From: Argyresthia goedartella | Lineage: Eukaryota > Arthropoda > Insecta > Lepidoptera > Argyresthiidae | NCBI GenBank assembly: GCA_949825045.1 | Contig: OX463836.1 | Span: 15,166,329 to 15,230,328, forward strand | Direction of reading: 5' to 3' | DNA: 64,000 bases | Part shown: one piece after another, positions 2,971 to 54,855 of the stretch | Layout of the letters: each line of letters opens with the position of its first letter | Position numbering within the stretch: the stretch's first letter is position 1 | The notes under the pieces: model-generated | Told to the model about the DNA's origin: nothing | Seen by the model: the letters and a program-made list of their open reading frames with translations, nothing else | Database searches by the model: none | Program-made: the position numbers and the translations under genes

Positions 2971-2988
2971 ACTTTATTACTTTATACT

Positions 2989-3170
2989 TTATCGTGAAGG
3001 AACATAAATAAAATGGTTTTAGGTATAAATTCACACTTTTATTTGATAAAACGGGTTAAAAAGTATGGAGCACGTACAGCGAGTTAGAGAGACAGATTTG
3101 AAGAGGGTGAATGAATGGTAATGCCTAATTTTTACATTCATTCATGCTATTTGAGTGTTCGTTGCGAACA
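2989..3170 (-). repeat. 3' LTR of element G
   Basis: 182 bp, matching 22624-22805 without length difference. The inverted ends of the family are TGTTCG...CGAACA. Here the outer end reads 'ttatcg' instead of 'tgttcg' (two changes), while the inner end 'gttgcgaaca' is intact. It is preceded by TSD ATACT (2984-2988). The LTR is short for a BEL/Pao element. Confidence 0.85.
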
Positions 3171-3348
3171 TATTCCCGAGAGGCGGGTAAAACCCAATTT
3201 CAAGTTAAATAGAAAAGGTACAATTTTAATTTTATTTCTAGGTACATGCACCTGACGTTTGTTTGTACTAACAACTTAATATTAAATAAATATTTTGTTA
3301 CATATACAACATTTTTTATTTAAAAGTTTACAATTTACAACATTCCTT
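3171..3348. other. G 3' noncoding region (no gene)
   Basis: AT-rich stretch between the pol stop and the 3' LTR of G. No ORF or RNA gene is seen. A recognisable polypurine tract is not obvious next to the LTR. Confidence 0.6.
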
Positions 3349-4560
3349 TCATATATCTATAGGAAGCAAACATAGCTTATTTATAGCTCTACGGGTCGTG
3401 CCATTGGCAGTTTTAATATCGGCAACTCTTATTTTTTCATCAGGCCGTTTGTAAACCTTAACGACTCTGCCTGTTGGCCAATGCAAAGGCGCAGTATTGT
3501 CGTCCCGTAACAGTACTAAGCTTCCCTCAGCCATGTTTTCTTGGCTATTGTGCCATTTAGAACGGCTATTTAGCTGCGATAAATATTGCCTATGCCAGGC
3601 TTTCCAAAAATGCTGCTGTATTTGTGTGCAGCGTCTCCAGAAGCGAAGCCTGTTTGTAGGAATTGACGTTATATCAGGCTCTGGTACAGCTGTTACAGCA
3701 GCCCAAAAGAAAATGGACGGGCGTTAATATAGAAAAATCAGAGATATCGTTAGACATTCCTGTTATTCGCCTTGAATTGAGAATGCCTTCTATGCTAACT
3801 ATAATCGTATTGAATTCTTCATATGTGAATAAACTAAGTCCTACTATTCTTTTGAAATGATACTTAAAGCTTTTCACTGAACTTTCCCAGATCCCACCAA
3901 AGGTCGGGGAATAGCTGGGTATGTATTGAAAATTGATACCTTTGGAAGTAGCAAAATTATTCATTAAGGCTACATGTTCATTCGACTTATTAAGCAAGTA
4001 CAAATCTTTTAATATATTGTCAGCCCCTTTAAACGTTTTAGCGTTATCGCAATATATTGAATTGGGCACTCCGCGCCTTGCGATAAATCGTTTTAATGCT
4101 GCAAGAAAGCATTGAGACGTCATGTCAGACACAAGTTCTAAGTGAACCGCATTGGTGACAAAGCACACAAATACAGCAACATAGCCTTTGGTTATGACAG
4201 TTCGTCGCAATGACGATTGCTTTATTTGAAAGGCTCCACAGTAATCTATGCCGACTATACTAAATATTTTGGCTTCGTTTACTCTATCAGAAGGTAATGA
4301 GCTCATTAACTGAGAAGCGCACTTGGCTCTAAATCTGTAACAATTAATGCATTTGTTTATTATTCTTTTAACTTCTCTGTTGCAATTAACGATCCAATAT
4401 TTTTGGGACAAGTTACACATCATTAATTTTAACCCAGCATGCATTGAGTTTAAGTGCTCGTCTTGTATAACTATATCTGTTACATGACATTTTTTGGTAA
4501 AATTATCGAATATTTTTGAGAATACGGTATTGACGAGTTTTGTAAACGACCACTTACTCT
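3349..4560 (-). pseudogene. G pol: integrase and C-terminal domain
   Basis: 4444-3674 encodes the integrase. A zinc-binding Cys pair is in 'INKCINCYRF'. The catalytic Asp residues are in 'GIDYCGAF' and 'IYCDNAKTF', and the Glu in 'GGIWESSVK'. The frame stops near 3674 and the C-terminal DUF5641-like end resumes at 3534-3349 ('LVLLRDDNTAPLHWPTGRVV', ending 'LCLLPIDI'). The catalytic triad is present, but the break between 3534 and 3674 and the loss of frame upstream make it a pseudogene. Confidence 0.85.
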
Positions 4561-4701
4561 CATTACACTATTGCCATCTAAGAATGGTGCTAAGCTTTTT
4601 AAGCTCGATTTAATAGGTAAATTGTTTTTTACATTTTTCATTTCCTCATGGAAATATATATTCTGAATAACAGATATTATATTAAATCGGGCATTTTCTA
4701 A

Positions 4702-5291
4702 TTATTTTGAAGACAGGTTACCCGTGAGTTTGTTGCTTCTGTTTTTACAGTTATATTTTAATCGCAATATGCAAGCAAATATTCTTTGCATTTTGAACCA
4801 TGATGAATATTGGTTAAATATTGATGGTTCATTGACACCCAAGTGTGCTGCCTGCTCACGCGCGGCTGGCGATATTTTGGCGGCGGCGGCCTCACATAGC
4901 GTATGGTTGCACGAAACCGAAAAAGGCAGCGGCTTATAGTTAGGCAAGGAAATCTGAGGAGGCCCGCACCACCATAAGTTGTTTTTTAGCAGATCAGCAG
5001 GATCACAGCCCCGAGATAAGCAGTCAGCAGAGTTGGATGCTCCATCTATGTGGAACCAGTCACTATCTGATGTAATAGAGTTGATAACATTCACTCTGTT
5101 TTTGACATAAACAGGGATGGTATTTCTTTTCGACTTTAACCAACATAAGACTACTTGTGAGTCTGAAAACAAGTATTTTCCATGAAATTTAATTTTAGAG
5201 TACACCGTCATTACTTTATTGTACAACCTTGCTAATAATGCCGCATTAAGTTCGAGCTTCGGGGCAGTCAAGGTGTTTTTTACAGGTGAAA
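4702..5291 (-). pseudogene. G pol: RNase H region
   Basis: Reads 'TAPKLELNAALLARLYN' and 'FSDSQVVLCWLKS', the typical BEL/Pao RNase H signature with Asp in 'SDSQ', then 'SADCLSRGCDPADLL'. It ends at a stop near 4702, short of the integrase. The upstream coding is disrupted by the fold-back and tandem insertion at 5287-5381 and then by the maT element. Confidence 0.85.
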
Positions 5292-5381
5292 TTACAGGTA
5301 AGTTACAGGTAAGTTACAGTTTTTTACAGGTAAGTTACATTATTGTGTTCAAAGTCAAGACTTTGAACACAATAATGTAAC
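5287..5381. repeat. Fold-back palindrome plus short tandem repeats in G pol
   Basis: 5334-5356 and 5359-5381 are perfect 23-bp inverted copies with a 2-nt loop. Next to them (5287-5339), 'acaggtaagtt' is repeated three to four times. On the minus strand, coding of G (ending '...TLLCSKS') runs into the palindrome at 5359 and resumes as 'ISPVKNTLTAPKLEL' at about 5295. The insertion is therefore about 80 bp and one arm is an inverted copy of the adjoining coding sequence. Confidence 0.85.
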
Positions 5382-5414
5382 TGTTACATTTTCATTATGA
5401 ATAACTCTTATATA

Positions 5415-5441
5415 CACAGTCAGGTCATAAGTTCTGTCACA
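5415..5441. repeat. Left terminal inverted repeat of maT
   Basis: 27 bp; complement of 6687-6713 with one mismatch at the third base. The inner 24 bp are identical. Confidence 0.93.
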
Positions 5442-5557
5442 CAATAAAAACTTTTGAATTTAGAACGCTGGCCACAAAAAAGTTTATTGAATTCGAATTT
5501 CGAATTTTTCATGAAAATAAAAATGTGTACTTTTTAGAATTTTCCTCATTTTTAAAT

Positions 5558-6588
5558 ATGCAGTGGACACTTAAAGAATACCATGTCGCAGTTATTGCGT
5601 TGCATCGTTGCGGTTACGCGCCAATTCAGATTTTCGACTTACTGAAAAATTTGAATATAACCAAAAGATTCGTTTATCGTACCATAAAACGATACAATGA
5701 AGACTCTAGTGTAGATGACAGGTCAAGAAGTGGTCGCCCTCGCTCTGTTAGGACTCCAGCAGTGATAAAAGCTGTGAAGGCGCGAATTCAAAGAAATCCC
5801 ATACGTAAGCAGAAACTGTTGGCCCTTCAGATGGGGTTAAGCAAGACCACGGTGAAAAGGGTGTTAAATGTGTTAGGGCATATCGAAGAAAAACAGGACA
5901 TCGTTCGGACGCTCGTTTAATGGACCTGAGACTGAAGAGATGCCGCGCATTGTTGAAGCGGTACGCGGGAAAAAAGCATCGGGAAATTATTTTTTCGGAT
6001 GAAAAAATTTTCACCGTGGAAGAGAGCTACAACAAAGAAAATGATAAGGTGTACGCACACAGCAGTGAACAAGCGAGCAACCGTATTCCGCGTGTCCAAC
6101 GAGGTCATTTTCCATCCTCGCTCATGGTTTGGTTGGGAGTCTCTTATTGGGGCTTAACTGAGGTACATTTTTGTGAGAAAGGCGTAAAAACGAATGCAGT
6201 TGTGTATCAAAATACAGTCCTCAAGAACCTTGTGGAACCTGTTTCGCATACCATGTTTAATAACAGGCACTGGGTATTCCAACAAGATTCTGCGCCAGCT
6301 CATAGAGCGAAAAGCACACAAGACTGGCTGGCGGCGCGTGAAATCGACTTCATCCGGCACGAAGACTGGCCCTCCTCCAGTCCAGATTTGAGTCCGTTAG
6401 ATTACAAGATATGGCAACACTTGAAGGAAAAGGCCTGCTCAAAGCCTCATCCTGATTTGGAGTCACTCAATGCATCCTTTATTAAGGCAGCCGCCGATAT
6501 TGACATGGACCTCGTTCGTGCTGCGATAGACGACTGGCCGTGCAGAATAAAGGCCTGTATTCAAAATTGCGGGGGTCATTTTGAATAA
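5558..6588 (+). pseudogene. maT mariner transposase (one frameshift)
   Basis: The start chosen is ATG 5558 ('MQWTLKEYHVAVIALHRCG'), the first Met before the helix-turn-helix region. An N-terminal paired-like domain runs to 'LSKTTVKRVL'. The reading frame then shifts between about 5860 and 5885, and the catalytic domain continues in another frame to 6588. The triad is visible: 'IIFSDEKIF', 'VFQQDSAPAH' and 'SPDLSPLDY'. There are 37 residues between the second and third Asp, which fits maT (DD37D). The ending 'IQNCGGHFE' is typical. It is inactive only because of the frameshift. Confidence 0.9.
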
Positions 6589-6686
6589 ACTTTATTACCA
6601 TAAGAATCTATGTTTTATTAAGTTCATTTTGCTATATAAATGTTTTCATAAATAATAAACATGTCTAAATTATTTCATATTGCACA

Positions 6687-6713
6687 TGTGACAGAACTTA
6701 TGACCTGACTATG
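6687..6713. repeat. Right terminal inverted repeat of maT
   Basis: 27 bp; complement of 5415-5441 with one mismatch; followed by the TA target duplication. Confidence 0.93.
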
Positions 6714-7494
6714 TAAATGCAACATCTATATGCAATATTGGATGCAACACAGTACCCAAATATTTCTATGCATTGTGCATTACATGTGTTTAAATTTCTG
6801 TTGACTGATATGTCAGGCATTGATATCAAGTTCATATAAAAAGCTTGCCATGCTTTAAGCAATTGTGCTGGTATGGGGGAATCCCATTTAAGATTTTCCT
6901 TCCATACTTTTTGTAAAAATTCCTTAGCCCTAACTATAACGGGTCCTGCCAGCCCCAGAGGATCGAAGAAGGACCCTATCACACTCAGGATGGTCCTCTT
7001 ATTCCACGACTCTATATGCCTCGTAGGACAGCTTACTTTTAAAATATCATTGCTGACATCGTATGACAATCCTAAAGCTTTCATTGCTTTTTCGACCTCA
7101 ATTGCTTTTTCGATTGTTTGGGCTCCAAAAAGATCATCGTCTACATACATGGCTGTGCTGATTACATCTGCTGCTAACGGCATCTCAGCTTCATTACGCT
7201 CTGCAAGCTCCTCGAGGCATCTGGTGGCTTGGTAACTGGAACTTTTGACCCCTTATGTCAAGGTCTGTAATTGGAGAATAATTTTGCGGTTACAGTCATC
7301 TCTAATATATTTTGCAGATGCCTATGAGATGGATCAATCTTTATAGCTCTGTACATATGCCTTATATCTGTTATGAGTACATATTTGTGTGACCTGAATA
7401 AAATTAATATGTCAAACAGGTCTTTTTGCACCTTGGGTCCGTTTAAGAGAACTTCATTTAAGCTGTTATGATGAGAACTTGCTTTTGATAAATC
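6714..7494 (-). pseudogene. G pol: RT palm and connection
   Basis: Minus-strand RT between the BEL I and maT insertions. It has the catalytic 'TAMYVDDDLFGAQ' (YVDD) in 7183-6714, then 'VIGSFFDPLGLAGPV', a BEL/Pao hallmark. Upstream (7494-7200), 'NSLNEVLLNGPKVQKDLFD' and 'LITDIRHMYRAIKIDPSHRH' are RT motifs 1-3. A TAA stop and frame changes lie near 7240-7290, so it is dead. Confidence 0.85.
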
Positions 7495-8031
7495 CCACGC
7501 CTCAACCGAACGGGCGTGGAATCTTGGTAGGGTTGGTTTTCACCAGGAGTATCACAAGTGGTACTGACCTTTGACGCCGTGGACCGGAATTCGAAAGCTC
7601 AATTCGAGGCAGGAATACGGGATAAGGAGCACAAGGGGTGGGGGGAGAGGAGTCGAATCTTACTCTCGTCGTAGCCCGATGCTGTCGCCATCGCTGCCGA
7701 ACGCGACGAATTGGGGACCGAACCACTTCAAGCTTCACAACACGAAGCACTCACTCCGCTGACGTGAATCTACTTATTTCCCGACGATTGTTCCGTGCTT
7801 ATTATAATTAACATTCCGACCAGGCCCGACACCTGTGTTAGACAATTATTACTACTAAAATACAGCCAAGGCCCGAACGCCATGTGCCGACATTTTCTTC
7901 AAGTCAAAAAGTAACCTCTAACTCGTCATCTCGTTTCTATACAAGTGACAGCTGCTAGTTCCGTTTCCGATCACTCGCGGTCCGAGTCGCGCAACAAAAA
8001 GAGGTGCGTTCCGAAGCATAAATATTAAACA
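7495..8031 (-). repeat. 3' LTR of element I
   Basis: Copy of 13967-14503 with substitutions only (for example c/t in 'gttttcaycagg'). The outer end on the minus strand starts TGTTTAATATT. The opposite end 'ccacgcctcaaccgaacggg' forms a short inverted repeat with 'cgtgg' and lacks the usual TG/CA, so this boundary is uncertain by a few bases. Confidence 0.88.
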
Positions 8032-8062
8032 GTCACCCGCCCAGACAGGCCCGAACCTGTCC

Positions 8063-10168
8063 CTAATCAATAGGAAGGCGAGAAAGTGTTGCGACCGCTC
8101 TCTTGAGGACCGAGTCCCCCACCTTGACTTCTGCTGATCGAGGCGTGCCATCCCGACCCGTGTACAATTTGACGATCCGTCCTCGTATCCATCTCAATGA
8201 TGGCAGGTTCGCATCCTTAATCAGCACCAAATCACCGACTTGAGGGGGGCTCGTCCGGTCAGTCCACTTAAGGCGCTGCTGCAAGATGTGCAAGTACTCA
8301 AGGGACCACCGTTTCCAAAAATCTTGAGCCATCTGCTGCAACATCTGCCACCTAGTTAACCGACTTAACTTAACATCATCGAATGGGTATTCTGGCAGGG
8401 CGTTAAGGGGCTGACCTATCAGGAAGTGACCCGGCGTCAACGCTTCCAAATCATTTGGATCCGAACTGAGCGGGCACAACGGACGCGAGTTCAGTGTCAT
8501 TTCAATTTTACAGAACAGCGTCGCAAGCTCTTCAAAGCGTAGAGAGGTCTCACCGATGATCCTCGTCAGATGCGACTTAGCCGATTTAACCGCAGCCTCA
8601 AAAATTCCTCCCCAATGAGGACATCCCGGCGGACTGAAAACCCATTCAATCCCTCGTCGGGAGCAAGCCGTACCGATGGCGTCCTGGTTACCGTTCAGGA
8701 ATTGAGTGACCTCCTGCAGATATCGCCTGGCTCCGACAAAATTTGTGCCGTTGTCCGAACGGATTAATGTCGGGAGGCCCCTTCGTGAGACGAACCGATC
8801 TAGACATGCGATAAATGCCTCTGTAGTGAGGTCACTGACCACCTCCAAGTGGACTGCCTTCGTGGCCAAGCACACGAAGACGCACAGGTATGCCTTCACT
8901 AATCTGGCGTTCCGTAGCTGTGAAGACTTGACCATGAATGGTCCCGCGAAATCCGTTTCGACACCCGCAAAGGGCCGGATTTCGTTAACCCTATCCGAGG
9001 GCAAATCGCCCATCTGGGGCTGCATCGTAGCCGCCTTGGCCCGATAACAAGGCAGGCACCGAAATACGACGCTACGCACTAAGCGTCTTCCCGATAGAAT
9101 CCAGAACTCGCGCTGGAGAAACGCCATCAAGGCGTGGCATCCGATATGCCCATTCCGAATGTGTCGATCCTGTATCAACAGTTCGACCAACTTCCCTTCC
9201 AGGTTGGCATTCCGCAGCCGACCTCCTACCCTCAGCAATCCTTGAGGGTCAATAAACGGGTTGAGCCGAGCCACAGCTCCCTTCAGTTGGACGCGTCCGC
9301 GTCTCAGAATGTCCAGTTCGGACTTAAAGTGCACCGTCTGCACGTTCCGTACCAATGCGAACAACGCATGGTTCCGTTCCCGTGGTGTCAGGACCCGTGT
9401 CCGCACCCGTTGCGCCTCAGAACTGCGACAATTCCGCGCAAATCGGAAGATCCAGGCGGTCACATTGACCAGCTTGTCGAGCGAGCTGTACCGTTCCAGC
9501 AGGCTGAACTCGTCTTCCGGCTCTGGCCGCGTCGTACAGACACCAACTGTCAAGGCGCCGTTCGCCGAGGTAACGCGTGGACTCATTGGCCAATCCGATT
9601 CGGCTTGAGTCAACCATTTTGGACCCCACCACAAGGGATGTCCAACCAACTCCGGAGCGTGACACCCACGAGACGCACAGTCTGCTGGGTTCATCTCCCC
9701 TGGAACATGTCTCCAGATTAAGGGAACCTCCGAATTCAAAATCTGCGAAACCCGATTCGCCACAAAAATCTCCAGCTTGTGAACTGAAGCCTTCAGCCAG
9801 CATAACACGATCTGGCTGTCCGTCCAAGCGTAGACCGTATCTTTTAACGCTATTGACCCACGAAGAACCGTCATCGTGTGGTTGAGCAGACGAGTCAGGA
9901 GAGCCGCTCCCGAAAGCTCTAATTTGGGAATGGTCAGGCGAGTGCGCAACGGCGCAACCTTGCTCTTGGCCATGACCAACCGCACATCAACCTCCCGCGA
10001 GGAGTCGACCGTACGCAGATATACCGCAGCTCCGTAGCCCTTCTCCGAGGCATCGCAAAACCCATGCAGGGTGGCGGTGTATCGTTTGGTGGGGACCAAC
10101 CTCCTTGGCAGTGAAATCCGATTGATGCCAGGGATGGTCGAAAAGAACGAGTCCCACTCTGAGCTCAA
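8063..10168 (-). CDS. I pol: RNase H, integrase, DUF5641-like C-terminus
   Basis: Open frame of about 700 codons. RNase H begins at 'LHGFCDASEKGYGAAVYL' and includes 'AWTDSQIVLCWLKA'. The integrase has the zinc-binding 'HIGCHALMAF' and 'FRCLPCYRAK', then catalytic 'GVETDFAGPF', 'IRSDNGTNFVGA' and 'HWGGIFEAAVKSAKS' (D, D, E). The C-terminal domain ends '...VATLSRLPID' just before the LTR. It is joined upstream to the RT frame (9987-11600) by a frameshift near 10,000-10,170. This part could encode intact enzyme domains. Confidence 0.9.
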   Translation of the reverse strand: MSSEWDSFFSTIPGINRISLPRRLVPTKRYTATLHGFCDASEKGYGAAVYLRTVDSSREVDVRLVMAKSKVAPLRTRLTIPKLELSGAALLTRLLNHTMTVLRGSIALKDTVYAWTDSQIVLCWLKASVHKLEIFVANRVSQILNSEVPLIWRHVPGEMNPADCASRGCHAPELVGHPLWWGPKWLTQAESDWPMSPRVTSANGALTVGVCTTRPEPEDEFSLLERYSSLDKLVNVTAWIFRFARNCRSSEAQRVRTRVLTPRERNHALFALVRNVQTVHFKSELDILRRGRVQLKGAVARLNPFIDPQGLLRVGGRLRNANLEGKLVELLIQDRHIRNGHIGCHALMAFLQREFWILSGRRLVRSVVFRCLPCYRAKAATMQPQMGDLPSDRVNEIRPFAGVETDFAGPFMVKSSQLRNARLVKAYLCVFVCLATKAVHLEVVSDLTTEAFIACLDRFVSRRGLPTLIRSDNGTNFVGARRYLQEVTQFLNGNQDAIGTACSRRGIEWVFSPPGCPHWGGIFEAAVKSAKSHLTRIIGETSLRFEELATLFCKIEMTLNSRPLCPLSSDPNDLEALTPGHFLIGQPLNALPEYPFDDVKLSRLTRWQMLQQMAQDFWKRWSLEYLHILQQRLKWTDRTSPPQVGDLVLIKDANLPSLRWIRGRIVKLYTGRDGTPRSAEVKVGDSVLKRAVATLSRLPID

Positions 10169-11600
10169 TGATCGGGTCGTCCCATTTCAGCTCAGCAGAC
10201 CACAATTGCTGCATAAAACACTTGAGCTGAAATGTTACCGGGGTGATCCACCCGTTTGGATCAAATGTCCTAGCCACCGTTGAAAGGACGTTCCGTTTCG
10301 TGCAGACCTTCGGGGAGTCCAACTCGACCGGATACGAAAACATGTCTGACACCGGCTGGTACTGGACGCCTAATACCGACAACATATTTGGATTTTCCAA
10401 ATTTTCAAAAATGTGGGGATCCTGCTGGTAGTCATCCGGAAGACCAGACAGTAACTCTGGAGAGTTCGACATCCATTTCCGGAGCTCGTAACCTCTACCC
10501 CGTAGGAGCTCAACTAGCTCGTCCCGACGAGCGAGCGCCTCCTCTACGGAATCTGCACCGGTACAGATATCGTCCACGTAGAGATCCTGCTCCAGGATTG
10601 CTGCTCCTCTAGGGAAATTTAACCGTTCTCGATCCGCTAACTCCCGCAGAGTGCGAATCGCCAAATAAGGACTAGACCATAGCCCGTACGTGTTGGTGTC
10701 CAGCTCGTACACCCTGATGGGCTGATCTGGGCTCTCTCGCCACAGTATCAGCTGATACCGTCTATCGTCAGGGTGAATGACCGTCTGCCTAAACATCATC
10801 CGGATGTCAGCTACAAACACAACATTGTGTCGACGGAACCGTGTGATAATATCCGCGATGTCATGGTTCAACTTCGGCCCTGAATGCAAACACTGGTTCA
10901 GGTTCATGCCGTTAGATGTTGATGCCGATCCATCGAACACTACCCGTATTTTGCCCTCCGGGGTCCTCAAGACCGCGTGATGAGGCAGGAAGCAGTGGTC
11001 TTCACGCTTCCAGTCGATACCCGAAACCGACATGTGGCCGAGCGACTCGTATTCCCGCATGAAGTCGACGTACTTCTGCCGGAAAATCCCGTCACGCTTC
11101 ATGCGTCGTTCCATCGACAGAAGCCGCGTCTCGGCTGCATGGTGTGAACTGCCCAGCGGTGGGCGATCACTCCGGAATGGAAGACGTGTGAGAAATCGAC
11201 CTGACCGAAGGCAACCAGTATTGTTCCGATAAAACTGTTCAGACTCTTCTTCAACCGGGTCCAACCGGCGGACCGTAGGTGGTTCCTCCACCTCCCAAAA
11301 CTTCTGTATCACCTCCGAGAGTACAGAACCGAATAAGGGACTACGAGTCGCTAGGCGTGGGGCAGCCGGCATGACCGGACCCATTACCGCATGGCCCAGT
11401 CTGGTGTTGATCGAAACCAGACCAGTCGCCTGCAACACGTGGACACCTGGCACTAACAGGTATGCCAAGGCATCGACACCCATTAAAATGTCTACTGGGC
11501 CCGGAATATCGAACTCCGGGTCAGCCAGTGACAACCCAGCGACCAACTGTCGCACCGAGGGCGACAACCGTACGTGAGGGACGAGAGAGTAATCCGACAT
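9987..11600 (-). CDS. I pol: reverse transcriptase
   Basis: Carries the protease-RT linker ('VDILMGVDALAYLL') and the RT core: 'KIRVVFDGSASTSNG', 'VVFVADIRMMFRQTVIHPDD' and 'EQDLYVDDICTGADS' (YVDD). It is followed by 'VARTFDPNGWITPVTFQLK', the BEL/Pao connection. The frame changes at the end into the RNase H/integrase frame, and at the start from the protease frame, so expression as one protein would need frameshifting or repair. Catalytic motifs are intact. Confidence 0.9.
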   Translation of the reverse strand: MSDYSLVPHVRLSPSVRQLVAGLSLADPEFDIPGPVDILMGVDALAYLLVPGVHVLQATGLVSINTRLGHAVMGPVMPAAPRLATRSPLFGSVLSEVIQKFWEVEEPPTVRRLDPVEEESEQFYRNNTGCLRSGRFLTRLPFRSDRPPLGSSHHAAETRLLSMERRMKRDGIFRQKYVDFMREYESLGHMSVSGIDWKREDHCFLPHHAVLRTPEGKIRVVFDGSASTSNGMNLNQCLHSGPKLNHDIADIITRFRRHNVVFVADIRMMFRQTVIHPDDRRYQLILWRESPDQPIRVYELDTNTYGLWSSPYLAIRTLRELADRERLNFPRGAAILEQDLYVDDICTGADSVEEALARRDELVELLRGRGYELRKWMSNSPELLSGLPDDYQQDPHIFENLENPNMLSVLGVQYQPVSDMFSYPVELDSPKVCTKRNVLSTVARTFDPNGWITPVTFQLKCFMQQLWSAELKWDDPIIELRVGLVLFDHPWHQSDFTAKEVGPHQTIHRHPAWVLRCLGEGLRSCGISAYGRLLAGG

Positions 11601-11794
11601 ACTCCCTTAACGGAACTGACTTCCGTGTTCCCAATTCCCCTAATGGAATGTGGATACTCCCTTACCGAAATGCGCAACCATCTTACAAGGTTGCACGAGA
11701 CTAAGCACCCCTGGGCCCCCGAGTCCAATAGTGCTCGTGCCACACATGCTTTGCCGTCCGAACTCCACGCTATCACAGAGGCGGTGGGGAGCAT
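11492..11794 (-). pseudogene. I protease segment
   Basis: 'VARALLDSGAQGCLVS' is a retropepsin-type active site (DSG). It overlaps the RT frame by about 100 bp in a different phase, which indicates a frameshift near 11,550-11,600. Confidence 0.75.
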
Positions 11795-27068: not shown

Positions 27069-27073
27069 TTGTT

Positions 27074-41427: not shown

Positions 41428-41443
41428 GCCGTGCCGTGTCGGT

Positions 41444-41469
41444 GTCGTGTGTGTGTGTGTGTGTGTGTG
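41444..41469. repeat. (TG)n microsatellite at the 5' end of L
   Basis: About 12 TG units end near 41469, 6 bp before the right TSD of L. Confidence 0.8.
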
Positions 41470-41481
41470 AGAGAACCCGAG

Positions 41482-42258: not shown

Positions 42259-42267
42259 ACTACCATC

Positions 42268-44190: not shown

Positions 44191-44466
44191 ACTGGTTATG
44201 GGTATGCTTATCAAACTATTTTTAATCTCGCTTAATTGTTCTTTATTTTATACACACACACTTAATACAAACACCATCCACAATAACACTTACCGCATTA
44301 CAGACACACACATGAATTTTACCTGCAACACTCTCTACATAAATCATGCACATGCTAAAAAAATTCTCCATACCTCAATAACTCATGAATCTCTAACACA
44401 ATTCAACAATATGTATCTTAATAAAACAACCTCACTATTATCAAACTGCAATCATCAAAATAATAA

Positions 44467-47427
44467 ATGGCTAACTTAGAGTTTATAGACGAATTCGACA
44501 AATCAGTAGAGATTCCATGCCATCGAATAGCATTGCCAGAATTAACAAAGAGTGTGTTGCAAAAGGACCTCGATTTTAAAATTATATCTTTTAACATACG
44601 CAGTCATAATCACAATTTCGATAACTTTATTATAGCGCTAAACCGGTTCGAGATATCCTTTGATGTCATTATTCTAACAGAATGTTGGCTAGGACAATCG
44701 CCTTTAATACATACCATAGATGGGTACTCACATCATTATACACAAAAGTATACAAATCAAAACGGAGGCGTTATAGTTTATATAAAAGATTTCTGGAACG
44801 CTACTGTCTCTGAACCTGATAACAATCTAGATACTAACTGCCTTAAAATATCACTGCCCAATAACTATATAATTTTTGCAATTTACAGATCCCCAAATAA
44901 CAGCTTATCAAACTTCACGACCTTTCTCGAAGAAATACTAGAAGAACACAAAAACAGCCCTAAAATTATACTAGCCGGTGACATTAACATAGACATTTTG
45001 TCTTCAGATTCATCATCATCAAACAACATGCATTCAGATTACCTTTGTATAACTGCGGAGCACAAACTTATACCTGCAATTACCTTACCTACTAGGGCCA
45101 CTTCTTGTCTTGATCACATCTTTATAAAAAGCAATCATCAGGCAATTTCAATAGTATGTCAAACATCAGTCACTGATCACGATTTTACAGCTGTTGGATT
45201 GAAAACCAAACATTGCCAAATAAATACTAAAAGACAAATATCAAAAGTAAACTTTTCTGCAGTCGTTCAAGAGCTGCAATCTATTGATTGGTCAGATATT
45301 ATGCTTAGTTCGGACGTGTCTATAGCTACAGAGCTCCTATCTACAAAGCTACAGGATACTATACAAAATAATACTACTTTCAAGAGCATTAGTAGATCTA
45401 AATTTAACCTCAAGCCTTGGATAACTCCGGGGCTTATACGATGCATAAAACATAGAGACAAACTCCATCTTGCGTGTAGAAAATATCCCAAAGATGAAAC
45501 AGCCAAACTAATATTTACAAGATATCGCAACTTCTGCAACGATTTGCTTCACAAACTTAAGGCTCAGTATGAAAATAAACTGTTAACAGACAACAACAAA
45601 AACCCTAAGAAACTCTGGAGCGCTATTAAAAGCATATGCGATCTAAACACATCCAAATCGAATGCCCCCATGTCACTACTCACAGCCAAAGTCACACCTT
45701 CCGACTCTATTCACGACTGTAACCAATATTATGCATCTGTAGGCGAAAATTTAGCAAAAGAAATCCTAACTAAAACCAACCAATCCGAATCATCTCTAGC
45801 CTCTGATACCAATTCACAAAATTCTCTACCACACTCGTTTTTTATATATCCCACAGATGAGAGGGAAGTCAGTGACTACATATCTCAATTAAAAAACGAC
45901 AGCGCTCCCGGTTCAGACGGACTCAAACCATCTCTCATAAAAGAAATCAGTTCTTTGATAATAAAACCTCTCACACATATATGCAACTTAAGCCTGTCAC
46001 AGGGAGTTTTTCCACAGATATGGAAAACTGTCTCACTAACTCTGATTCATAAATCTGGGGATAAGACTACGCCCTGTAATTTTCGACCGATTTCACTTCT
46101 GAGCATCCTCTCAAAAATATTAGAAAAAACTGTACATAGACGTCTGTGCAAATATTTGGAAACTAACGACTTACTGTCTCCTTGTCAATTTGGATTTCGT
46201 CGGGGAAAATCTACAGAGGATGCAATTGCTAAGTTACTAGAGACAGTGACGGGTAATCTAGATAAGGGACGGTGCTGTGTTGGTGTCTTTCTGGATTTAG
46301 CAAAAGCATTCGACACAGTGTCCGTTCCAATCTTACTGAAAAAGCTGGAGAACCTAGGAGTTAGGGGCGTGGCTTTGCATTGGTTTTGGAGCTACCTCAG
46401 TAATAGACAAATTATTACTAAGATAGGGAAACTAATAAGTTCTCCTCTGCCGATAAACTTCGGAGTTCCACAAGGCAGCATCCTGGGACCGACATTGTTC
46501 CTTATATATATGAATGACGTTTCCACTTCTATATCCCCCTCTCTGAAAGCTGAAACTATATGTTATGCTGATGATACAGCGATAATTTTTAACGATTCTT
46601 CCTGGGACTCAGTGATAAAACAAGCAACTGCTGGTATCTCAGAAATCGCAATTTGGCTTGCAAAAAACTTACTTACACTTAATACCTCTAAAACAAAATT
46701 CATTTGCTTTCACAAAACTAAGGCTTCCCAACCAAAATCTAATTTCAAGTTACATATTCACACTTGCAACCAGTCATCTAAAGTATGTAACTGTGAATAC
46801 ATTAGTAGAGTCTGTGACATCAAATACCTAGGTATAGTGCTTGACGAAAAACTTACATTTCAAAAACACCTGAGCACACTCGCAGGTCGAGTACGCAAAA
46901 TTATTCACATAATGAAATCACTTCGCCGCGGTGCTCCGAAGGAAACACTAAAGCTGGTATATCTAGCTCTGTGCCAATCCGTCCTCACCTACTGCATCAG
47001 GTGTTGGGGAGGATCTTCGAAATCTTACATGTTAGAAGTAGAACGAGCACAGCGCTCGGTACTAAAAGTAATGTACAAGAAACCTCGCATGTATCCTACC
47101 ACTTTATTGTACGAGGAAAGCAAAGTGCTGAGTCTACGAAAACTCTACATTTTGAAGGTGGTGTTGATGCAGCATAGAATTATCATTAATAGTACGGAAT
47201 ACGAACAACTACTGTCAAAAAGAGTATTTAAAATTTCTAAACCTTCTGTAAACACTGCCTTTGCTCAGCGATTCGCACCATTTTTGCATACACACATATA
47301 CAACGTCGTGGTAAAAGAGTGTGAAGGAGGAATAAAGGAATGTACTGTAAAGGAAGCTAAACGAAAAGTTCTTATCTGGCTGAATAAAATAGATTATGAT
47401 GCCACAGAAACAACAATTGGTGTCTAA
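44467..47427 (+). CDS. M ORF2: endonuclease and reverse transcriptase
   Basis: 986 codons, intact. Endonuclease: 'FKIISFNIRSHNHNFDNFII', 'FDVIILTECWLGQ', 'FAIYRSPNNSL' and 'IILAGDINIDILSSD', with 'TSVTDHDFTAVGL' at the SDH position. RT: 'SAPGSDGLKPSLIKEI', 'FRPISLLSILSKILEKTV', 'VGVFLDLAKAFDTVSVPILL', 'FGVPQGSILGPTLFLIYMND' and 'ETICYADDTAIIF' (YADD). Thumb: 'KYLGIVLDEKLTFQKHL'. The start ATG 44467 is the first in the frame, 276 bp after ORF1. Confidence 0.92.
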   Translation: MANLEFIDEFDKSVEIPCHRIALPELTKSVLQKDLDFKIISFNIRSHNHNFDNFIIALNRFEISFDVIILTECWLGQSPLIHTIDGYSHHYTQKYTNQNGGVIVYIKDFWNATVSEPDNNLDTNCLKISLPNNYIIFAIYRSPNNSLSNFTTFLEEILEEHKNSPKIILAGDINIDILSSDSSSSNNMHSDYLCITAEHKLIPAITLPTRATSCLDHIFIKSNHQAISIVCQTSVTDHDFTAVGLKTKHCQINTKRQISKVNFSAVVQELQSIDWSDIMLSSDVSIATELLSTKLQDTIQNNTTFKSISRSKFNLKPWITPGLIRCIKHRDKLHLACRKYPKDETAKLIFTRYRNFCNDLLHKLKAQYENKLLTDNNKNPKKLWSAIKSICDLNTSKSNAPMSLLTAKVTPSDSIHDCNQYYASVGENLAKEILTKTNQSESSLASDTNSQNSLPHSFFIYPTDEREVSDYISQLKNDSAPGSDGLKPSLIKEISSLIIKPLTHICNLSLSQGVFPQIWKTVSLTLIHKSGDKTTPCNFRPISLLSILSKILEKTVHRRLCKYLETNDLLSPCQFGFRRGKSTEDAIAKLLETVTGNLDKGRCCVGVFLDLAKAFDTVSVPILLKKLENLGVRGVALHWFWSYLSNRQIITKIGKLISSPLPINFGVPQGSILGPTLFLIYMNDVSTSISPSLKAETICYADDTAIIFNDSSWDSVIKQATAGISEIAIWLAKNLLTLNTSKTKFICFHKTKASQPKSNFKLHIHTCNQSSKVCNCEYISRVCDIKYLGIVLDEKLTFQKHLSTLAGRVRKIIHIMKSLRRGAPKETLKLVYLALCQSVLTYCIRCWGGSSKSYMLEVERAQRSVLKVMYKKPRMYPTTLLYEESKVLSLRKLYILKVVLMQHRIIINSTEYEQLLSKRVFKISKPSVNTAFAQRFAPFLHTHIYNVVVKECEGGIKECTVKEAKRKVLIWLNKIDYDATETTIGV

Positions 47428-47699
47428 AACTTTAACATACACACACACACACACCCTCTCACATACATACATACACACACATGCAGATATCTATTAATTA
47501 TTTTAACATAATTTAATATAATATAAATTTAAATAATAACAGTGATTAATTGTTAAACTTAAATTCAAATTAAATTTTATTCAATTTTCATGTTATCGCC
47601 GCAAATAAGGATTGTCAAATGTTTATTTCCTCCCTCACAAGACAGGCTATGCCTAGTGTGAGGGTCAGCATACCTGTGAATTGTATTTCCTTATGGCAA

Positions 47700-47729
47700 T
47701 AAACGATTTTCATTTTCATTTTCATTTTC
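47700..47729 (+). repeat. (ATTTTC)n 3' tail of M
   Basis: 'attttcattttcattttc' directly abuts the resumed endonuclease frame of C at 47730-47733. It marks the 3' end of M. Confidence 0.8.
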
Positions 47730-47732
47730 ACA

Positions 47733-50255
47733 GTTATCCTAGCTGGTGACTTCAACAGCAAGCACCAGCAATGGAACTGTAATGAGACAAATACCAACGG
47801 ACGGACCGTACACAGACTTCTCGAATCCCTCGATGACTGCGAAGTCATAGCTCCCTATGCCCCGACCCATTATCCCTACACTGCTGACCACAGACCAGAC
47901 ATTCTCTCCTACTGTATCTTCAAAAACATTAGCCTCCCAGTCAGGGACATAAGTGTACATAGCGAGCTTCACTCGGATCATAGACCGGTCTTATACTATC
48001 TCGGCAGGCCATTCGACCAACCGACTGAAACCAGGACCGTTATTAACAACCGTAAATTCAAGCAAGCTCTCAGTAAGCGGGACCCAAGATTAGATATCAC
48101 ATCAGAAATTGACAATAGAGCCCAACTAGAAGCCAAAATCTCTGACATAGGCAGCAGTCTCAACGAAGCCCTGACCGGCGCCTCTAGCGAGGTCCCGGTA
48201 CAGGCTAACCATCGCTTCGAACTCCCAGAGGACTTGAGACTGCTGCTTAGTGCAAAGAATGCGGCACAAAGAGATTATGATAACTGTCCCTCAGACAATC
48301 ACAGAATTCAAATGCGTCGCCTCCAACGAGAGGTTACCAGATGCATGCGAGAGCTCAGAGGCAGTCGCATGAACGACTTTGTCTCCAGCATAGCCCCAAG
48401 TCACACTGCCATATTTAAATTCAGTAAATACCTCAAATCCGATGAGATTGTTCCCATGCCCCCCCTAAAACGGGATAACCAACCCGCAGCCTTTGATGAC
48501 GACGAAAAGGCCGAATGTCTTGCCGATAGTCTAGAAACCCAGTGCACTCCCTCCTCTCAACCAATAGACCCCGATCATCTTAACATGGTCAACTCTGAAG
48601 TTGAGCATAAAAGCTCTCTCCCCCCCATTGACTCCCTTCCCGAGATCACCCTTGAGGAAGTGCAAAAAGTAATAAAGGAACTCAAACCTAAGAAAGCCCG
48701 GGGGCTTGATAGAATCACTAATATGGCAATTAAATCTTTCCCTCTCAGACTCCTAACAACCCTTACGGTAATTTTCAATGCCTTCCTCCGTCTCTGTGCC
48801 TTTCCAACCGCATGGAAAGAAGCTGACGTTATTGGCTTTCACAAACCCCGGAAAGATCGAACCGACCCCACTTGCTATCGCCCCATTAGCTTACTTTCTT
48901 CAATAGGCAAAGTCTATGAACGGCTTATTCTCAACCGACTCAAAGACATTTGCATAGACAAAAATCTCATACCCAACGAGCAGTTTGGCTTTAGACCCAA
49001 ACACTCGTGCGTCCAACAGGTGCACCACATAACGGAGCACATTTACAAAGGGTTCCACACAGCGGCAAAGTCCAAAGATACCGGTGCCATATTCTTTGAC
49101 GTAGCGAAAGCTTTTGACAAAGTTTGGCACAATGGTCTTATTTATAAACTTTACCAACTCAACCTCCCCGATAGGCTTGTACTCATTATCAAAGACTACC
49201 TCACTGAGCGCAGTTTTTGCTATCGAGTAGAAAAATCGCGTTCTAGGCCCCACCCCATAGCCGCCGGAGTCCCGCAAGGCTCAGTTCTCTCCCCCACCCT
49301 CTTTTCACTTTACGTCCAAGACGTTTCCCGCACGCCATACGTCGAGCTAGCCCTTTACGCTGACGATACGGCTCTCTATTACACCAGTAGGAAGAGGGCG
49401 CGCGTTTGTCAAGTACTCCAGAAAGCAGTAATCGACCTCGGTGAATGGGCTCTCAAATGGAGAATAGAGATGAACCCCGAGAAAAGCGCAGCCGTGCTTT
49501 TCTCAAGGGGCAAAACTCGAGCTGACCGCGCGTCCTCTTCACTACCCGAAATCACCCTCTTTGACCGCCCTATCCCCTGGGAAAATAAAGTGAAGTATTT
49601 AGGCGTGACATTAGACTCCCGACTAAACTTCAAATCCCACATTAAAACGGTCCGCGACAAAGCAGCTTTCTACATGAGTAGGCTTCACCCGCTCATGAGA
49701 AGTAAAAGCAATCTTCCATTGCGCTGCAAAATAACTCTATTTAAAACTTGCATCCGTCCGGTCTTCACGTATGCAAGTCCAGTCTTTGCACACTGCTCCC
49801 ACTCCCTTAAGCCCCTTCAGGTTTTACAAAATCGCTTCATGCGAAAAGCCGTAGGTGCCCCGTGGTACATGCGAAACGTAGACCTCCATAGTGACTTTAG
49901 ACTCCCCACAGTAAAGCAATATATGAAAGAAGCGTCCGAACGCTTCTTCATTAATGCATCTAGCCACCCAAACCCGCTTATAGTACAAGCATCCCTTTAT
50001 GATCCGACCCCAGATATAAATAAGAAACACCTTTTCAAAAGGCGCCCCAAAGACGTCCTCCTAGAACCGGAGGACGATATCACGAAAGCTCTTAAAGCCA
50101 AACCACCCCCCGCCCCTCAGGCACGTCAACTTGACGAAGGCTGTGTTCCCGAAGCACTACAGCGTCTCAGATACCAAATTTGGATTGAAAGAGATCGCCG
50201 TCTTGATTCGACGAACACACAATCTCCCCCTGCCCCTTTAAACCTCCCGGACTGA
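47733..50255 (+). pseudogene. C ORF2, rest of endonuclease and RT
   Basis: Resumes 'VILAGDFNSKHQQWN' with the AGD..N motif, then 'HSDHRPVLYYL' (SDH). RT: 'KKARGLDRITNMAIKSFP', 'GAIFFDVAKAFDKVWHNGLI', '[20 protein letters not shown]' and 'LALYADDTALYYTS' (YADD). Thumb: 'KYLGVTLDSRLNF'. Stop at 50255. No stops; only the M insertion separates it from its N-terminus. Confidence 0.92.
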
Positions 50256-50687
50256 GGTCAGAGCCCCCCTAAATGACCCAAATACAAAATAGTTTAGGAT
50301 TAGGATAGGTCTCAAAAATTATATATAACCACTTCATAGTAGCGGGGGCAATCTGCCCCCCTAACATGCCGCCATCATGCCCGTTGACTATGAGCTGATG
50401 CCCGCTCATAAAATCGGGTAAGCAGGCAAACTCCTCCCATATATATCATATACACATATATATCGCCCAAAAGGGCAAATTGCAGGTAGAAAGCCTTCAG
50501 CATATACCGAGGCCATGGCTCACAGTAAAGTCTTAGTAGGACAACTGTAAACACAAAGGGGTTGTTTTTAGTCCGTATACCACACGAGCTGATGCCCGCT
50601 CAATATGTGGGGACCCGGACATAGCAGGGAGGTCTGACTCCTGGGCATGAGTAATTCCATTTTTTTCCCCTCCAACAAAAAAAAAAA
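50256..50687 (+). other. C 3' UTR and poly(A)
   Basis: No gene. 'gagctgatgcccgctca' occurs at about 50390 and 50586. An AT dinucleotide tract lies near 50440-50465. It ends with a run of 12 A just before the TSD. Confidence 0.8.
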
Positions 50688-50700
50688 CGAAAATTCATTC

Positions 50701-50892
50701 CCGATCGAGCTACAGCAGAAGAAGCACCAAGGCCTCCCCCTCGCCTCTCCGCCTGCAAATATGGAAGAAATTGCGTTATCATTCGAGCCCTCTTCGCCAT
50801 CAACCTAATAAGAAAATCTACAGTCCACGCTGCGCCCCGCAATAAGTACACACAAATACGAATTGCGGGGTGCTCTATGTACATCGCGTACA
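50701..50892 (+). repeat. 3' LTR of K, last part
   Basis: 192 bp matching 26874-27068 except t/g near 50764. Ends '...cgcgtaca' followed by TSD CCGAG (50893-50897) and D sequence. Confidence 0.92.
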
Positions 50893-51700: not shown

Positions 51701-51824
51701 GTTAATTTAAAGAGCTTGGAACAGATTCCAAGGAGTACATGTCATTATTATTACACTGCTCAATAGAAGCAGGCGTTTCATTAGTCAAAAACTTGACTGA
51801 GTTCAAAATAAAATAAGATAGTGA

Positions 51825-52820
51825 CTATGCTATCTGTTTTGTATAAAACCTAGATAGGTAATACCTATCCTTAGTCAAATAAAAATATTTTCCAATACAA
51901 ATATTGGTGTCTATGAAATGAAATTTTTCAGTATGACGACATGTCAATGTGTGTATAAATTTATTATAATCATGTCTTATATGATTTTCATGTTGTGACA
52001 AAGATTGGCTGAAGGGAAACGCAAACAAGATTATTCTATCTACATTTTGTAAAGAATTTAATTTGGAAAAGTATTTAGTAATTAGTTTTTTAGATACATT
52101 TTCCCTTCTACCAATTAAAATAATTAGGGTGGTTGGTTCTAAAAACTGCGATGACAACACTTTGTTTAATATTTGTGAATATGTGGCGCCAGGCATACAG
52201 TTATTTAATATTGCCTGGCCCACGCGCTGACTAAGTTGTAAACCCATATTTTTTCCAAGTTCATCGCTGTACATTATATACCTATCCTTTGTCCGAGAGA
52301 AGGAGGCGTTATTGATAACACTATTAGTACTCAAGTCGACTGACGGCGGCGCCTGGGTCAGTATCAGCTGTTCGGCCGGCTGCTCGGCGGGACACACGGT
52401 CGGCACGGAACAGTCCGCTGGAGCTTGTTTACAATCACAGATGTGATTGTCGGTTAAAGATATGAAAGTGTCATAATTATACTTACACGTCTCCAACAAA
52501 CTATTCATAGCCGACACATGTTCCTTAATTTCGTATTGTGCTGACTCATATTTACGTGTAATACTTTGTAATGATGAGTTTAAAATATGCATATCTGACT
52601 GGAGTCGCCGTGTGTCACATTCATACTTTTCTGTAGTTTTTTCCAAACATAATCTACAATCATCGATTTCGTTAAATAATTCGACACGTTCCTTGCTACA
52701 ATTTACATTTTTACAAAATATTTTATTTCTATTAGCTAGTTTTTGTGTTTTTTTTATATAATTATTCAATTTAACATATTTTTTTAATTTATTTTTACTA
52801 CAGCTCATAGTGGTTACAAA
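51825..52820 (-). pseudogene. D ORF1 (5'-truncated): coiled coil and SGNH-like domain
   Basis: The first part is Lys/Asn-rich with a Cys-containing segment ('NVNCSKERVELFNEIDDCRL') and a long coiled coil ('RRLQSDMHILNSSLQSITRK'). The C-terminal half resembles SGNH/GDSL esterase domains of CR1-type ORF1: 'YIMYSDELGKNMGLQLSQRV', 'CMPGATYSQILNKVL', 'LIILIGRRENVSKKL' and 'DRIILFAFPF'. The usual GDS nucleophile block reads 'YSDE', so esterase function is doubtful. The frame is fused in phase to the RT of E upstream. Confidence 0.65.
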
Positions 52821-54855
52821 TATCTGGAGATCGTCGGCGTAAAGATGGTATGATGAGGAGAGGACATCTGAGATGGAATTAATGAAGATAGAGAAAAGAA
52901 GAGGAGAGAGGATATCACCCTGGGGGACTCCCGCAAAGAGATCACACCACTCCGTTGAAGTCGTCTCCGACTTTATACGCTGCTGGCGACCTCTCAGATA
53001 AGAGTCGTACCAGTTAGCAGAGTCGGAGGACACGTTCAAGGACTTCAGTATCTCCACGAGAATGTCGAAATCGACGCAGTTAAAGGCGCTGTTGAAGTCG
53101 AGCAATGCTAATACAGTGAGCTGTTTCGCATCCATTGCTTGCTGAATTTCGTCGGAGACTTTGAGTAAGGCCGTGACGGTACTGTGACCCGGTCAAAATC
53201 CGGACTGGAATCGATTCAACAAGTTGTTAGAGGAAAGGTAGGAGGAGAGCTGCGAATGGATAATGGATTCTAGGACTTTGGAGAGGATTGGCAGGATGGA
53301 TATTGGACGAAAATCTTTAAAGGAGGAGGGATTTGATGTTTTGAGTAAAAGGATAACTAATGCTTTTTTCCAGACATTAGGGAAGGAAAAACTGGAGATA
53401 GAGTGGTTTATAATATGTGTGATCGCTGGAAGTAGCTCGTCGAGCACACTACTGATAATTTTAGTGCAGATATTATCATCTCCTACAGCTTTGGAGGAAA
53501 TGGTGAGCACTGCTTTCTTAACTGCATCAATTCTGACAAGACTGAAGTCAAATGGAGTAGAGGTGGAGGCGGACCTCGAGCGCAGTAGACGCAGAGTGGC
53601 ATCCTTGACAAAGGGTTCAATGACGACAGGGACGACTGATAAGAATAAAGAAACACCGAGCGACTTGAGGAATTTCCACACCTGGAAAGGATTATAACTC
53701 TCAATGCACTGAAAGATGTGGCGTCGCTTAGCATCACGACACATGCGGTTACATCGGTTTCGAAGGATTTGAAAAGCGCAAGGTGCTTGGCGGTTGGCTC
53801 CTTTTTGTATTGGCTTTTGGCCCTATTCCGTTTAGCCATCAAGCGCTTGATAGCATCAGTTAGCCAGGGTGCTGGAAAGTGTTTTACCTTGACCTTCTTA
53901 ACCGGTGCATGCTTGTCGAACAGTCTCAGAATCATTGCATTGAAATGGTGGATCTTTCATCCACAGTCACACTGGAGATAACAGGTGACCAGTCGATCGA
54001 CGCGGCATCAGATTTAAGGGATGCAGTATCAATACCCTTGAAGCTACGAATATGGATAAATTTTGCTCTGCTCTTGGGCGGCTTAATCTTATACGAGAGA
54101 TAAATCAGGTCATGAAAGGAAAAAGGAAAGTTAAACTGTCCATGGGTCGCAACCTTTTCCAAATCCGAGATGATCATGAGATCAAGGAGGGAAGGAGTGC
54201 AGTGTAGTTGACAATGAGTAGCGTTGAGAAGAAGAATATGCAAATTGAAAGAATTTACAATGGACTGGAGTTTAGTAGAGCGGGAATCATTTTTGAGGAT
54301 AAATGTATTTATATCACCAAGAATGAGGGTATCATTGTAAAGAGGAGTCAGCTGATTGAGCAAAGACTCGAAAGAGTCGAAATAATCAATACGGAGTAAG
54401 GGACTATAGAGAACGCCCAACATAACTTCATAATGGTGAAGACAGATTTCAAGAAAAAGATGTTCTGCAGATTCGGAGTACTCACTCGGCGAGACACTTA
54501 CAACTCTGCAAGAAATATCCGAGTAAAGGTTAATGGCTACGCCGCCATCTGCCTTCCCAATTATGTCGTTTCGATAGAGCTGGAACCCAGGTAGCGAGTA
54601 CATAGTGGATGGTAAAGTCGGCTTAAGAAAGGATTCAGATACAAAAATACCATCCACATGTTTACTACTGAACGCTTCGAGTATGTCCGGGTAACTAGAG
54701 TGGATACTCGGGGCGTTGATATGAACAATATTTAAATTGTTGCCCAGGCTACCAAAAACAGCGGTAAGTTTGTCGGATAGTGGTTCCTCCACAATGGAAT
54801 TGTCACTCTCCGCACTAATATAGTCGTCGTTTGATGAACAAGAGAAGAAACTATA
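52821..54855 (-). pseudogene. E ORF2: endonuclease and RT through YADD
   Basis: 54845-53932: endonuclease 'NLNIVHINAPSIHSSYPDIL', 'GIFVSESFLKP', 'MLGVLYSPLLRIDYFDS' and 'LILGDINTFILKNDS'. Then shifted frames 53935-53483 ('FPAPWLTDAIKRLMAKRNRA') and 53744-53193 ('SKAVGDDNICTKII', 'FRPISILPILSKVLESII'). 53135-52821 gives 'LALLDFNSAFNCVDFDILVE', 'GVPQGDILSPLLFSIFINS' and 'YHLYADDLQI'. At least three frameshifts or stops. It ends at the D insertion. Confidence 0.88.

What the first reader, a model, noticed from the sequence alone, without database searches (positions are those of the whole stretch)
2971..54855. A five-level transposon nest spanning 52 kb, resolved to base precision at most junctions
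One ~2.9 kb remnant of element E is spread over 52 kb. E contains G (TSD ATACT) and D (no TSD); D contains BEL K (TSD CCGAG); K contains A', A2 and C; C contains L (TSD cccgag) and M. Parallel to this, G contains a maT, BEL I and J. Nearly every join restores a reading frame (E at YADD, D between endonuclease and RT, K gag-pol, C ORF1 and ORF2, G at J and maT). The order gives a relative timeline: E, then D and G, then K, then C, then L and M. Such depth with intact innermost elements suggests a tolerated heterochromatic or piRNA-cluster-like locus (inference).
Basis: partly seen in the sequence, partly recalled or inferred. Interest (0 to 1): 0.92.

Follow-up and report, generated by a model that had tools for sequence, protein, structure and literature searches.

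The report
Transposon nest with promoter-seeking LINEs
A moth or butterfly chromosome carries a real stack of jumping genes nested five deep, and at least one of the jumping genes in the stack appears to insert where genes start being transcribed, including in front of histone genes.

Summary
The nest is real. Unplaced contig C61 of the same genome holds a homologous copy of the locus (1.15% substitutions) that carries E, G, maT and J but lacks BEL I and the whole D-K-A'-A2-C-L-M block. It shows exact empty sites for I and D. Genome copies show the empty sites of A' and C in K and of M in C. Order: E; G, maT, J; C31/C61 split; I, D; K; A', A2, C; L, M.

The unexpected part is targeting. C in K's 3' LTR and A' in its 5' LTR lie within 2 nt of the same LTR position, and two other K copies carry C there. 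Of 40 C copies examined, 17 lie just upstream of histone H2A, H3 or H2B genes, in sense. In 9 of 11 distinct resolved C targets a TATA-like box starts 18-25 nt above the nick (random positions 11%). The A family shares four targets with C. Best reading: C, and probably A, insert at RNA polymerase II start sites, so the nest is partly built by promoter targeting. Start sites are inferred from motifs, not mapped. The piRNA or heterochromatin idea is untested.

The parts
52821..54855 (-). E, first piece of the outermost LINE (endonuclease and RT up to YADD)
Evidence: Pfam RVT_1 and Exo_endo_phos_2; collinear with F; C61 empty site.
22811..23636 (-). E, continuation after D, up to the G insertion
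2989..22805 (-). G, BEL element inside E, with maT, I and J inside it; TSD ATACT 2984-2988 and 22806-22810; LTRs differ by 5 in 179
   Evidence: shared with C61
5413..6715 (+). maT (mariner-like) in G, between the two parts of the Peptidase_A17 domain
   Evidence: TIRs; DDE_3 and HTH hits, A17 profile positions 2-99 and 118-162 on either side
7486..14503 (-). I, BEL element in G; TSD CTTT; LTRs differ by 8 in 544
   Evidence: absent from C61 with exact empty site
15880..21176 (+). J, LINE with RNase H in G; ends approximate
   Evidence: RVT_1 and RNase_H; no TSD found; shared with C61
23637..52820 (-). D, LINE inside E, holding K and all deeper elements; no TSD
   Evidence: exact empty site on C61; RVT_1, endonuclease
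26018..50892 (+). K, young BEL element inside D; TSD CCGAG 26013-26017 and 50893-50897; LTRs differ by 3 in 750
   Evidence: unbroken LTR copies
26563..26861 (+). A', fragment of the A-family LINE in the K 5' LTR; TSD 26551-26562 and 26862-26873
   Evidence: empty site
29113..30971 (-). A2, A-family LINE in K; TSD AGAGATGGAAG 29102-29112 and 30972-30982
   Evidence: RVT_1
35240..50687 (+). C, Jockey-like LINE in the K 3' LTR, holding L and M; TSD CGAAAATTCATTC 35227-35239 and 50688-50700; poly(A) end
   Evidence: PRE_C2HC, endonuclease, RT; empty site
35204..35212 (+). TATA-like AATAAAAGG of the K 3' LTR, 23 nt above the C nick (the 5' LTR has the same word at 26530-26538)
35912..41475 (-). 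L, G+C-rich LINE in C ORF1, relative of A (about 64% in DNA); TSD CCCGAG 35906-35911 and 41476-41481; ORFs of 659 and 913 aa open
42724..47729 (+). M, LINE (ORF1 with Baculo_FP_2nd, ORF2 986 aa) in the C endonuclease; TSD ACA
   Evidence: empty site
1..768 (+). 3' part of an A-family LINE that starts left of the window; its target (from 769) has TATAAAAG 23 nt above the nick in the C61 empty site

Best explanation
A genuine five-level retrotransposon nest in a lepidopteran genome whose growth is partly directed. C, a Jockey-like LINE, and probably the A family, insert at transcription start sites of TATA-type RNA polymerase II promoters: histone H2A, H3 and H2B genes, the K LTR, and other repeats with a TATA box at the same spacing. 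Shown: sense orientation at the histone genes, TSDs of 12-15 nt, and a bottom-strand nick about 18-25 nt below a TATA-like box in most resolved targets. Inferred: the TSD spans the start site; the endonuclease is brought to, or prefers, the melted or TBP-bound promoter; the new copy begins at the host promoter's +1 and is transcribed from it. K, a young LTR element, offered two such landing sites, and A' and C took one each. L and M then landed in C without that preference.
For: Nest: C61 empty sites, TSDs, unbroken K LTR in 40 of 40 listed copies, unbroken C at the M site in 40 of 40. Targeting: same K LTR position hit by A', by the window's C, and by C copies on C12 and C26; the C12 insertion is independent, since its C 3' end equals young copies and differs from the window's by 5 in 241, and K's flank differs. 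17 of 40 C copies before histone genes, all in sense (identity). TATA-like box in 9 of 11 distinct targets against 11.2%; without the K LTR and with H3 merged 7 of 9, P 6.6e-6. A and C share four targets.
Against: Start sites were not mapped. The 17-30 nt search range was set after seeing the first flanks. The 40 C copies are the best matches of 287 candidates, so the youngest; array copies may be duplicates of each other. Of 23 copies with both flanks looked for, 7 gave no junction and 2 only a 4-5 nt chance repeat. One histone copy lies 175 nt before the ATG. By eye, L101 shows no TATA box. A2 is not at a promoter. H2A gave no Pfam hit, only PDB sequence matches.
Confidence: 0.72

Rival explanations
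1. An ordinary nest: insertions landed at random in gene-poor, rarely recombining DNA and were tolerated (heterochromatin, a piRNA cluster, perhaps the W chromosome); the shared K LTR site is coincidence.
For: Nested TEs are common in large genomes (PMC6911290, abstract), and TEs inserted into each other are described for a lepidopteran W (PMC9834309, passages). D, I, A2, L and M show no start-site geometry, so much of the nest needs no targeting.
Against: Same site hit in two LTRs of one K and in two other K copies; 17 of 40 C copies at histone genes; four targets shared by two LINE families.
Confidence: 0.13
2. C and A prefer a DNA feature (G+C-rich or palindromic DNA, loose sequence motif, or open chromatin in general) that promoters happen to have; no promoter factor is involved.
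For: The K LTR site follows the palindrome GGCGCGCGCGCGCC, and nested plant LTR elements have a weak preference for palindromes (PMC6911290, abstract). Histone genes and LTRs are likely to be open chromatin.
Against: Eleven distinct targets share no obvious sequence at the nick (by eye); most have no such palindrome; the spacing to the TATA-like box is narrow, which general openness does not predict.
Confidence: 0.22
3. Misassembly joined unrelated repeats.
For: No reads were available; D has no TSD.
Against: TSDs at most joints, no N in the window, exact empty sites.
Confidence: 0.02

Closest known systems
Target-specific non-LTR retrotransposons (R1, R2, TRAS, SART, Utopia; seen)
   Same: LINE insertion at a fixed point of multicopy host genes
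   Different: [quoted passage not shown] here the common factor looks like a polymerase II start site, not one sequence. PMC4640811 places most target-specific families in early-branched, Tx1 and R1 clades; C looks Jockey-like.
Jockey-type LINEs (names of hits: 'mobile element jockey', 'transposon BS')
   Same: PRE_C2HC ORF1, endonuclease and RT, poly(A) end
   Different: Start-site targeting, which I know of in no Jockey element (recall)
Drosophila 297 and 17.6 LTR elements at histone TATA boxes (recalled, no call)
   Same: Histone promoter as target
   Different: Those are LTR elements using an integrase; C is a LINE and leaves the TATA box upstream
torimochi, an LTR element that collects other TEs in silkworm cells (PMC9946225, abstract and passages)
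   Same: A young LTR element gathering other transposons
   Different: piRNA output was shown there, nothing of the kind here; torimochi is gypsy-like, K is BEL
Nested LTR retrotransposons of plants (PMC6911290, abstract and section 7)
   Same: Insertions inside insertions, ordered in time
   Different: There LTRs were among the least-hit regions; here both K LTRs were hit at the same point, by LINEs

Membership tests
Nested transposon cluster | Elements interrupt each other and the interrupted flanks match unbroken copies | tested here: met
   not answered for K in D and L in C
Target-specific LINE (C) | Independent insertions recur at the same position of a repeated target | tested here: met
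   K LTR: window and C12 independent, C26 also (independence not tested); histone H2A, H3, H2B
Target-specific LINE (C) | One shared target sequence | tested here: not met
   targets differ in sequence at the nick (by eye); what they share is the spacing to a TATA-like box
Target-specific LINE (A) | Recurrent target positions | tested here: inconclusive
   four targets shared with C, but A2 and most of the 22 flanks have no shared target
Jockey clade (C) | APE endonuclease plus RT, PRE_C2HC ORF1, poly(A) tail | tested here: met
Jockey clade (C) | RT phylogeny | not tested
   only names of hits
BEL/Pao element (K, G, I) | Peptidase_A17 and integrase domains, LTRs, TSD of 4-6 bp | tested here: met
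   Peptidase_A17 and integrase zinc-binding domain in all three, integrase core (rve) called in G and I only; TSDs of 5, 5 and 4 bp
piRNA cluster | Produces piRNAs | not testable with these tools
   no small-RNA data
W chromosome | Gene-poor, female-limited | tested here: inconclusive
   2 of 136 scored kinase matches on C31, both short, but C24-C28 show none in that list; C31 carries a histone array; sex linkage not testable

The most novel reading that the evidence does not exclude
Two LINE families of this genome, Jockey-like C and the A family, choose targets by polymerase II promoter architecture: they nick the template strand about 21 nt below the TATA box, duplicate the start site, and so place their own first base at +1 of a borrowed promoter, histone genes and LTRs above all. 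Nests would then grow because each young LTR element brings fresh landing sites.
Probability: 0.62. Interest if true: 0.88.

Novelty: new variant of a known kind. Interest (0 to 1): 0.8.

Why it matters
The LINE targets listed in the passages I read are repeated RNA genes, telomeres, microsatellites and transposons. A LINE that aims at polymerase II start sites would mean target choice by promoter architecture, would show how an element can gain a strong promoter at each landing, and would tie LINE activity to histone genes and LTR promoters. It also gives a testable rule for why some nests form where they do. The locus itself offers clean filled and empty sites for dating.

Tried and rejected
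W chromosome as explanation: one gene-family census did not separate C31 from other contigs; left open. C61 as plain allele of C31: a probe from C61:1.75 Mb matched C4 at 99%, not C31, so C61 may be a mosaic or a segmental copy; allele or paralogue is undecided and 'polymorphic' is not claimed. K as an unusually fast trap: a simulation gives P 0.002 (an earlier run with rough counts gave 0.003), but the locus was picked for its depth, so I do not rely on it. rDNA as the C array: Rfam found nothing in 11 stretches, 10 of them C flanks. Composite K::C duplication as cause of the C12 copy: rejected on the C and K differences and flanks. M as control: TATA 0 of the 4 resolved 5' flanks out of 10 fetched, measured from the 5' junction; the 10 3' flanks share no target by eye; its initiator count (5 of 10) is spoiled by its own tail. 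Literature: searches (19 papers with 3 of 4 terms, 15 listed; no paper with 5 of 6 terms) listed no title or abstract start on a start-site-targeting or histone-targeting LINE; this is not proof of absence, and Kojima and Fujiwara 2004 is not held.
Full report
WHERE IT IS. The window is C31:15166329-15230328 (contig of 24.9 Mb) of a 1.1-Gb genome in 89 contigs. The organisms named among the listed relatives of two LINE proteins are Lepidoptera, except one protein filed under Acinetobacter, so the host is taken to be a moth or butterfly; the species is not known.

THE NEST IS REAL. Self-comparison, ORFs and Pfam give the elements. E flanks run through the relative F, and 40 of 40 scored genome matches run through the D joint. 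The best, on unplaced contig C61, shares E's deletion. C61:1601962-1636928 is a homologous copy of the locus: 295 substitutions in 25,567 aligned bases over the collinear pieces (counts, sum; the pieces with A and F, 2-5% different, were left out as other TE copies). It holds E, G, maT and J in the same places but lacks I (TSD CTTT) and everything from 23637 to 52820; GGCGGTA|TATCTGG is the D empty site. C61 has an insertion of its own in G, about 5.3 kb with a 13-bp TSD. K's LTR is unbroken at the A'/C site in 40 of 40 scored matches of 183 candidates; they were ranked by match to the unbroken query, so they say nothing about how many copies are broken. C is unbroken at the M site in 40 of 40 scored matches of 287 candidates, all shown as 100% (39 at the top score). 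A2 has an 11-bp TSD.

ORDER. E; then G with maT and J (shared with C61; G's LTRs differ by 5 in 179); then the C31/C61 split (1.15%); then I (8 in 544, within error of the split) and D; then K (3 in 750); then A', A2 and C; then L and M. Whether C61 is the allele or a paralogue is open: another C61 probe matches C4.

THE SAME SITE TWICE. A' in K's 5' LTR and C in K's 3' LTR begin within 2 nt of the same LTR position. A C copy on C12 sits at that position in the 3' LTR of another K. There K's flank differs, and the C 3' end equals young C copies and differs from the window's C by 5 in 241, so the two C insertions are independent. A further K LTR with C at this site is on C26; its independence was not tested.

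WHERE ELSE C GOES. Of the 40 C copies, 21 lie within C31:8.01-8.50 Mb. The 3' flanks of all 40 were fetched and read. Seventeen run into a histone gene: H2A 10, H3 4 (one on C21), H2B 3. Sixteen of the 17 lie 70-94 nt before the ATG, all 17 in sense; L069 lies 175 nt before it. Identity was checked on one flank of each type against PDB chains (H3 1.3e-31, H2A 1.7e-30, H2B 6.3e-29); Pfam agreed for H3 and H2B (a second H3 piece fell just under its cut-off) and did not call the 55-residue H2A piece. Two run into the K LTR (L053, L088). Eight form four pairs with the same target (L055/L094, L071/L098, L079/L090, L072/L074; by eye). Eight others are single. Five (L073, L075, L077, L092, L097) showed no poly(A) junction; a sixth missed by the first script, L079, was read. 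The array copies may be duplicates of each other, so the independent histone insertions are at least four by distinct site (H2A, H2B, two nick points at H3), not 17.

PROMOTER GEOMETRY. 5' stretches were fetched for 28 of the 40 (plus C12); 17 of the 28 showed C's 5' end. I tried to pair 23 copies: 7 gave no TSD or no 3' flank, 2 gave only a 4-5 nt chance repeat and were dropped, and 14 gave a TSD of 12-15 nt. Merging duplicates left 11 distinct targets, the K LTR among them. In 9 of 11 a stretch matching TATAAA at 5 or 6 of 6 bases starts 18-25 nt above the nick; the other two match 4 of 6. Random positions of the window, its C31 neighbours and C61 reach 5 of 6 in 11.2% (P 1.3e-7). Leaving out the K LTR, which prompted the idea, and merging the H3 sites: 7 of 9, P 6.6e-6; exact boxes 4 of 9 against 0.8%, P 5.5e-7. 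The search range of 17-30 nt was chosen after the first flanks were seen. Among copies with a 5' end but no TSD, L100 and L114 have TATATAAGAG upstream and L101 has none (by eye).

THE A FAMILY. The A copy that ends at 768 sits 23 nt below TATAAAAG, seen in the C61 empty site. I fetched 3' flanks of 20 of the 39 other listed copies (40 scored of 1355 candidates); two are identical, leaving 19. Together with the three window copies, A shares four targets with C: the K LTR, the repeat at 769, and two other repeats. TCAKT, an initiator-like word, starts within 24 nt in 8 of 22 A flanks (P 4.8e-6) and 6 of 20 C flanks (P 2.6e-4), random 4.8%; these sets are not fully freed of repeated targets. Against this, A2 is not at a promoter, and most A flanks have no shared target. 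I rate A as probable and C as well supported.

CONTROLS. M, a LINE of the same nest, is dispersed (14 listed copies at 100%, the window's included) with no array. Ten of the 13 others were sampled: the 3' flanks share no target by eye, and 0 of the 4 resolved 5' flanks have a TATA box; the initiator count is spoiled by M's tail. In the window itself A2, L and D score 3 or 4 of 6; M scores 5 of 6, at 28 nt. This control is small.

MECHANISM. Shown: sense orientation at histone genes, narrow distance from a TATA-like box, TSD of 12-15 nt. Inferred: the duplicated stretch spans the start site, roughly the region melted in an open promoter; the endonuclease is guided by promoter-bound factors or prefers melted DNA; the inserted element begins at the start site and is transcribed from the captured promoter. 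No start-site map or experiment supports the inferred steps yet.

NEST AND TARGETING. Of the eleven insertions (D, G, maT, I, J, K, A', A2, C, L, M), A' and C carry the start-site signature, plus the A copy at 768 outside the nest; G, maT, I, J and K were not tested for it. So targeting explains why both K LTRs are broken at one point, not the whole stack. The piRNA or heterochromatin reading stays untested; torimochi (PMC9946225) is the nearest precedent I saw for a young LTR element that collects others.

PAPERS. PMC6911290 (abstract and section 7), PMC9946225 (abstract and passages), PMC9834309, PMC5035012, PMC4640811 and PMC6327564 (passages only). Recalled only: 297 and 17.6 at Drosophila histone genes, and my general picture of R1 and Jockey clades.

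Noticed in passing
C31:8008443-8500738 (G000): A histone gene array holding 21 of the 40 listed C copies; 16 of them sit just before H2A, H3 or H2B genes, and an A-family stretch (L047, 98.2% to A2) lies there too.
   Followed up: partly
C61:1600001-1660000 and 1750001-1751500: Unplaced contig C61 resembles C31 in one part and C4 (99%) in another: mosaic, haplotig join or segmental copies.
   Followed up: partly
L058 (C12), C 5' junction: The K LTR next to the C12 copy of C carries an extra A-run before GAAAATTCATTC on the 5' side, perhaps a trace of an earlier insertion or of second-strand synthesis.
   Followed up: no
35463-35464: The window's C lacks a stretch of 5' sequence that the other C copies have.
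   Followed up: no
59601-63123: Inverted ends (92.7% over 245 bp) around a DDE_Tnp_4 ORF: probably a DNA transposon.
   Followed up: no
54881-56000: Part of another LINE RT on the + strand, read by eye, directly beside E's outer end; the C31/C61 homology stops inside it at 55030.
   Followed up: no
C30 (G000): About 35 of the 150 scored RVT_1 matches lie on contig C30 (counted by eye): a strongly retroelement-rich chromosome.
   Followed up: no
P0133: A Jockey-like protein filed under Acinetobacter baumannii on a 2.9-kb contig: probably insect contamination.
   Followed up: no
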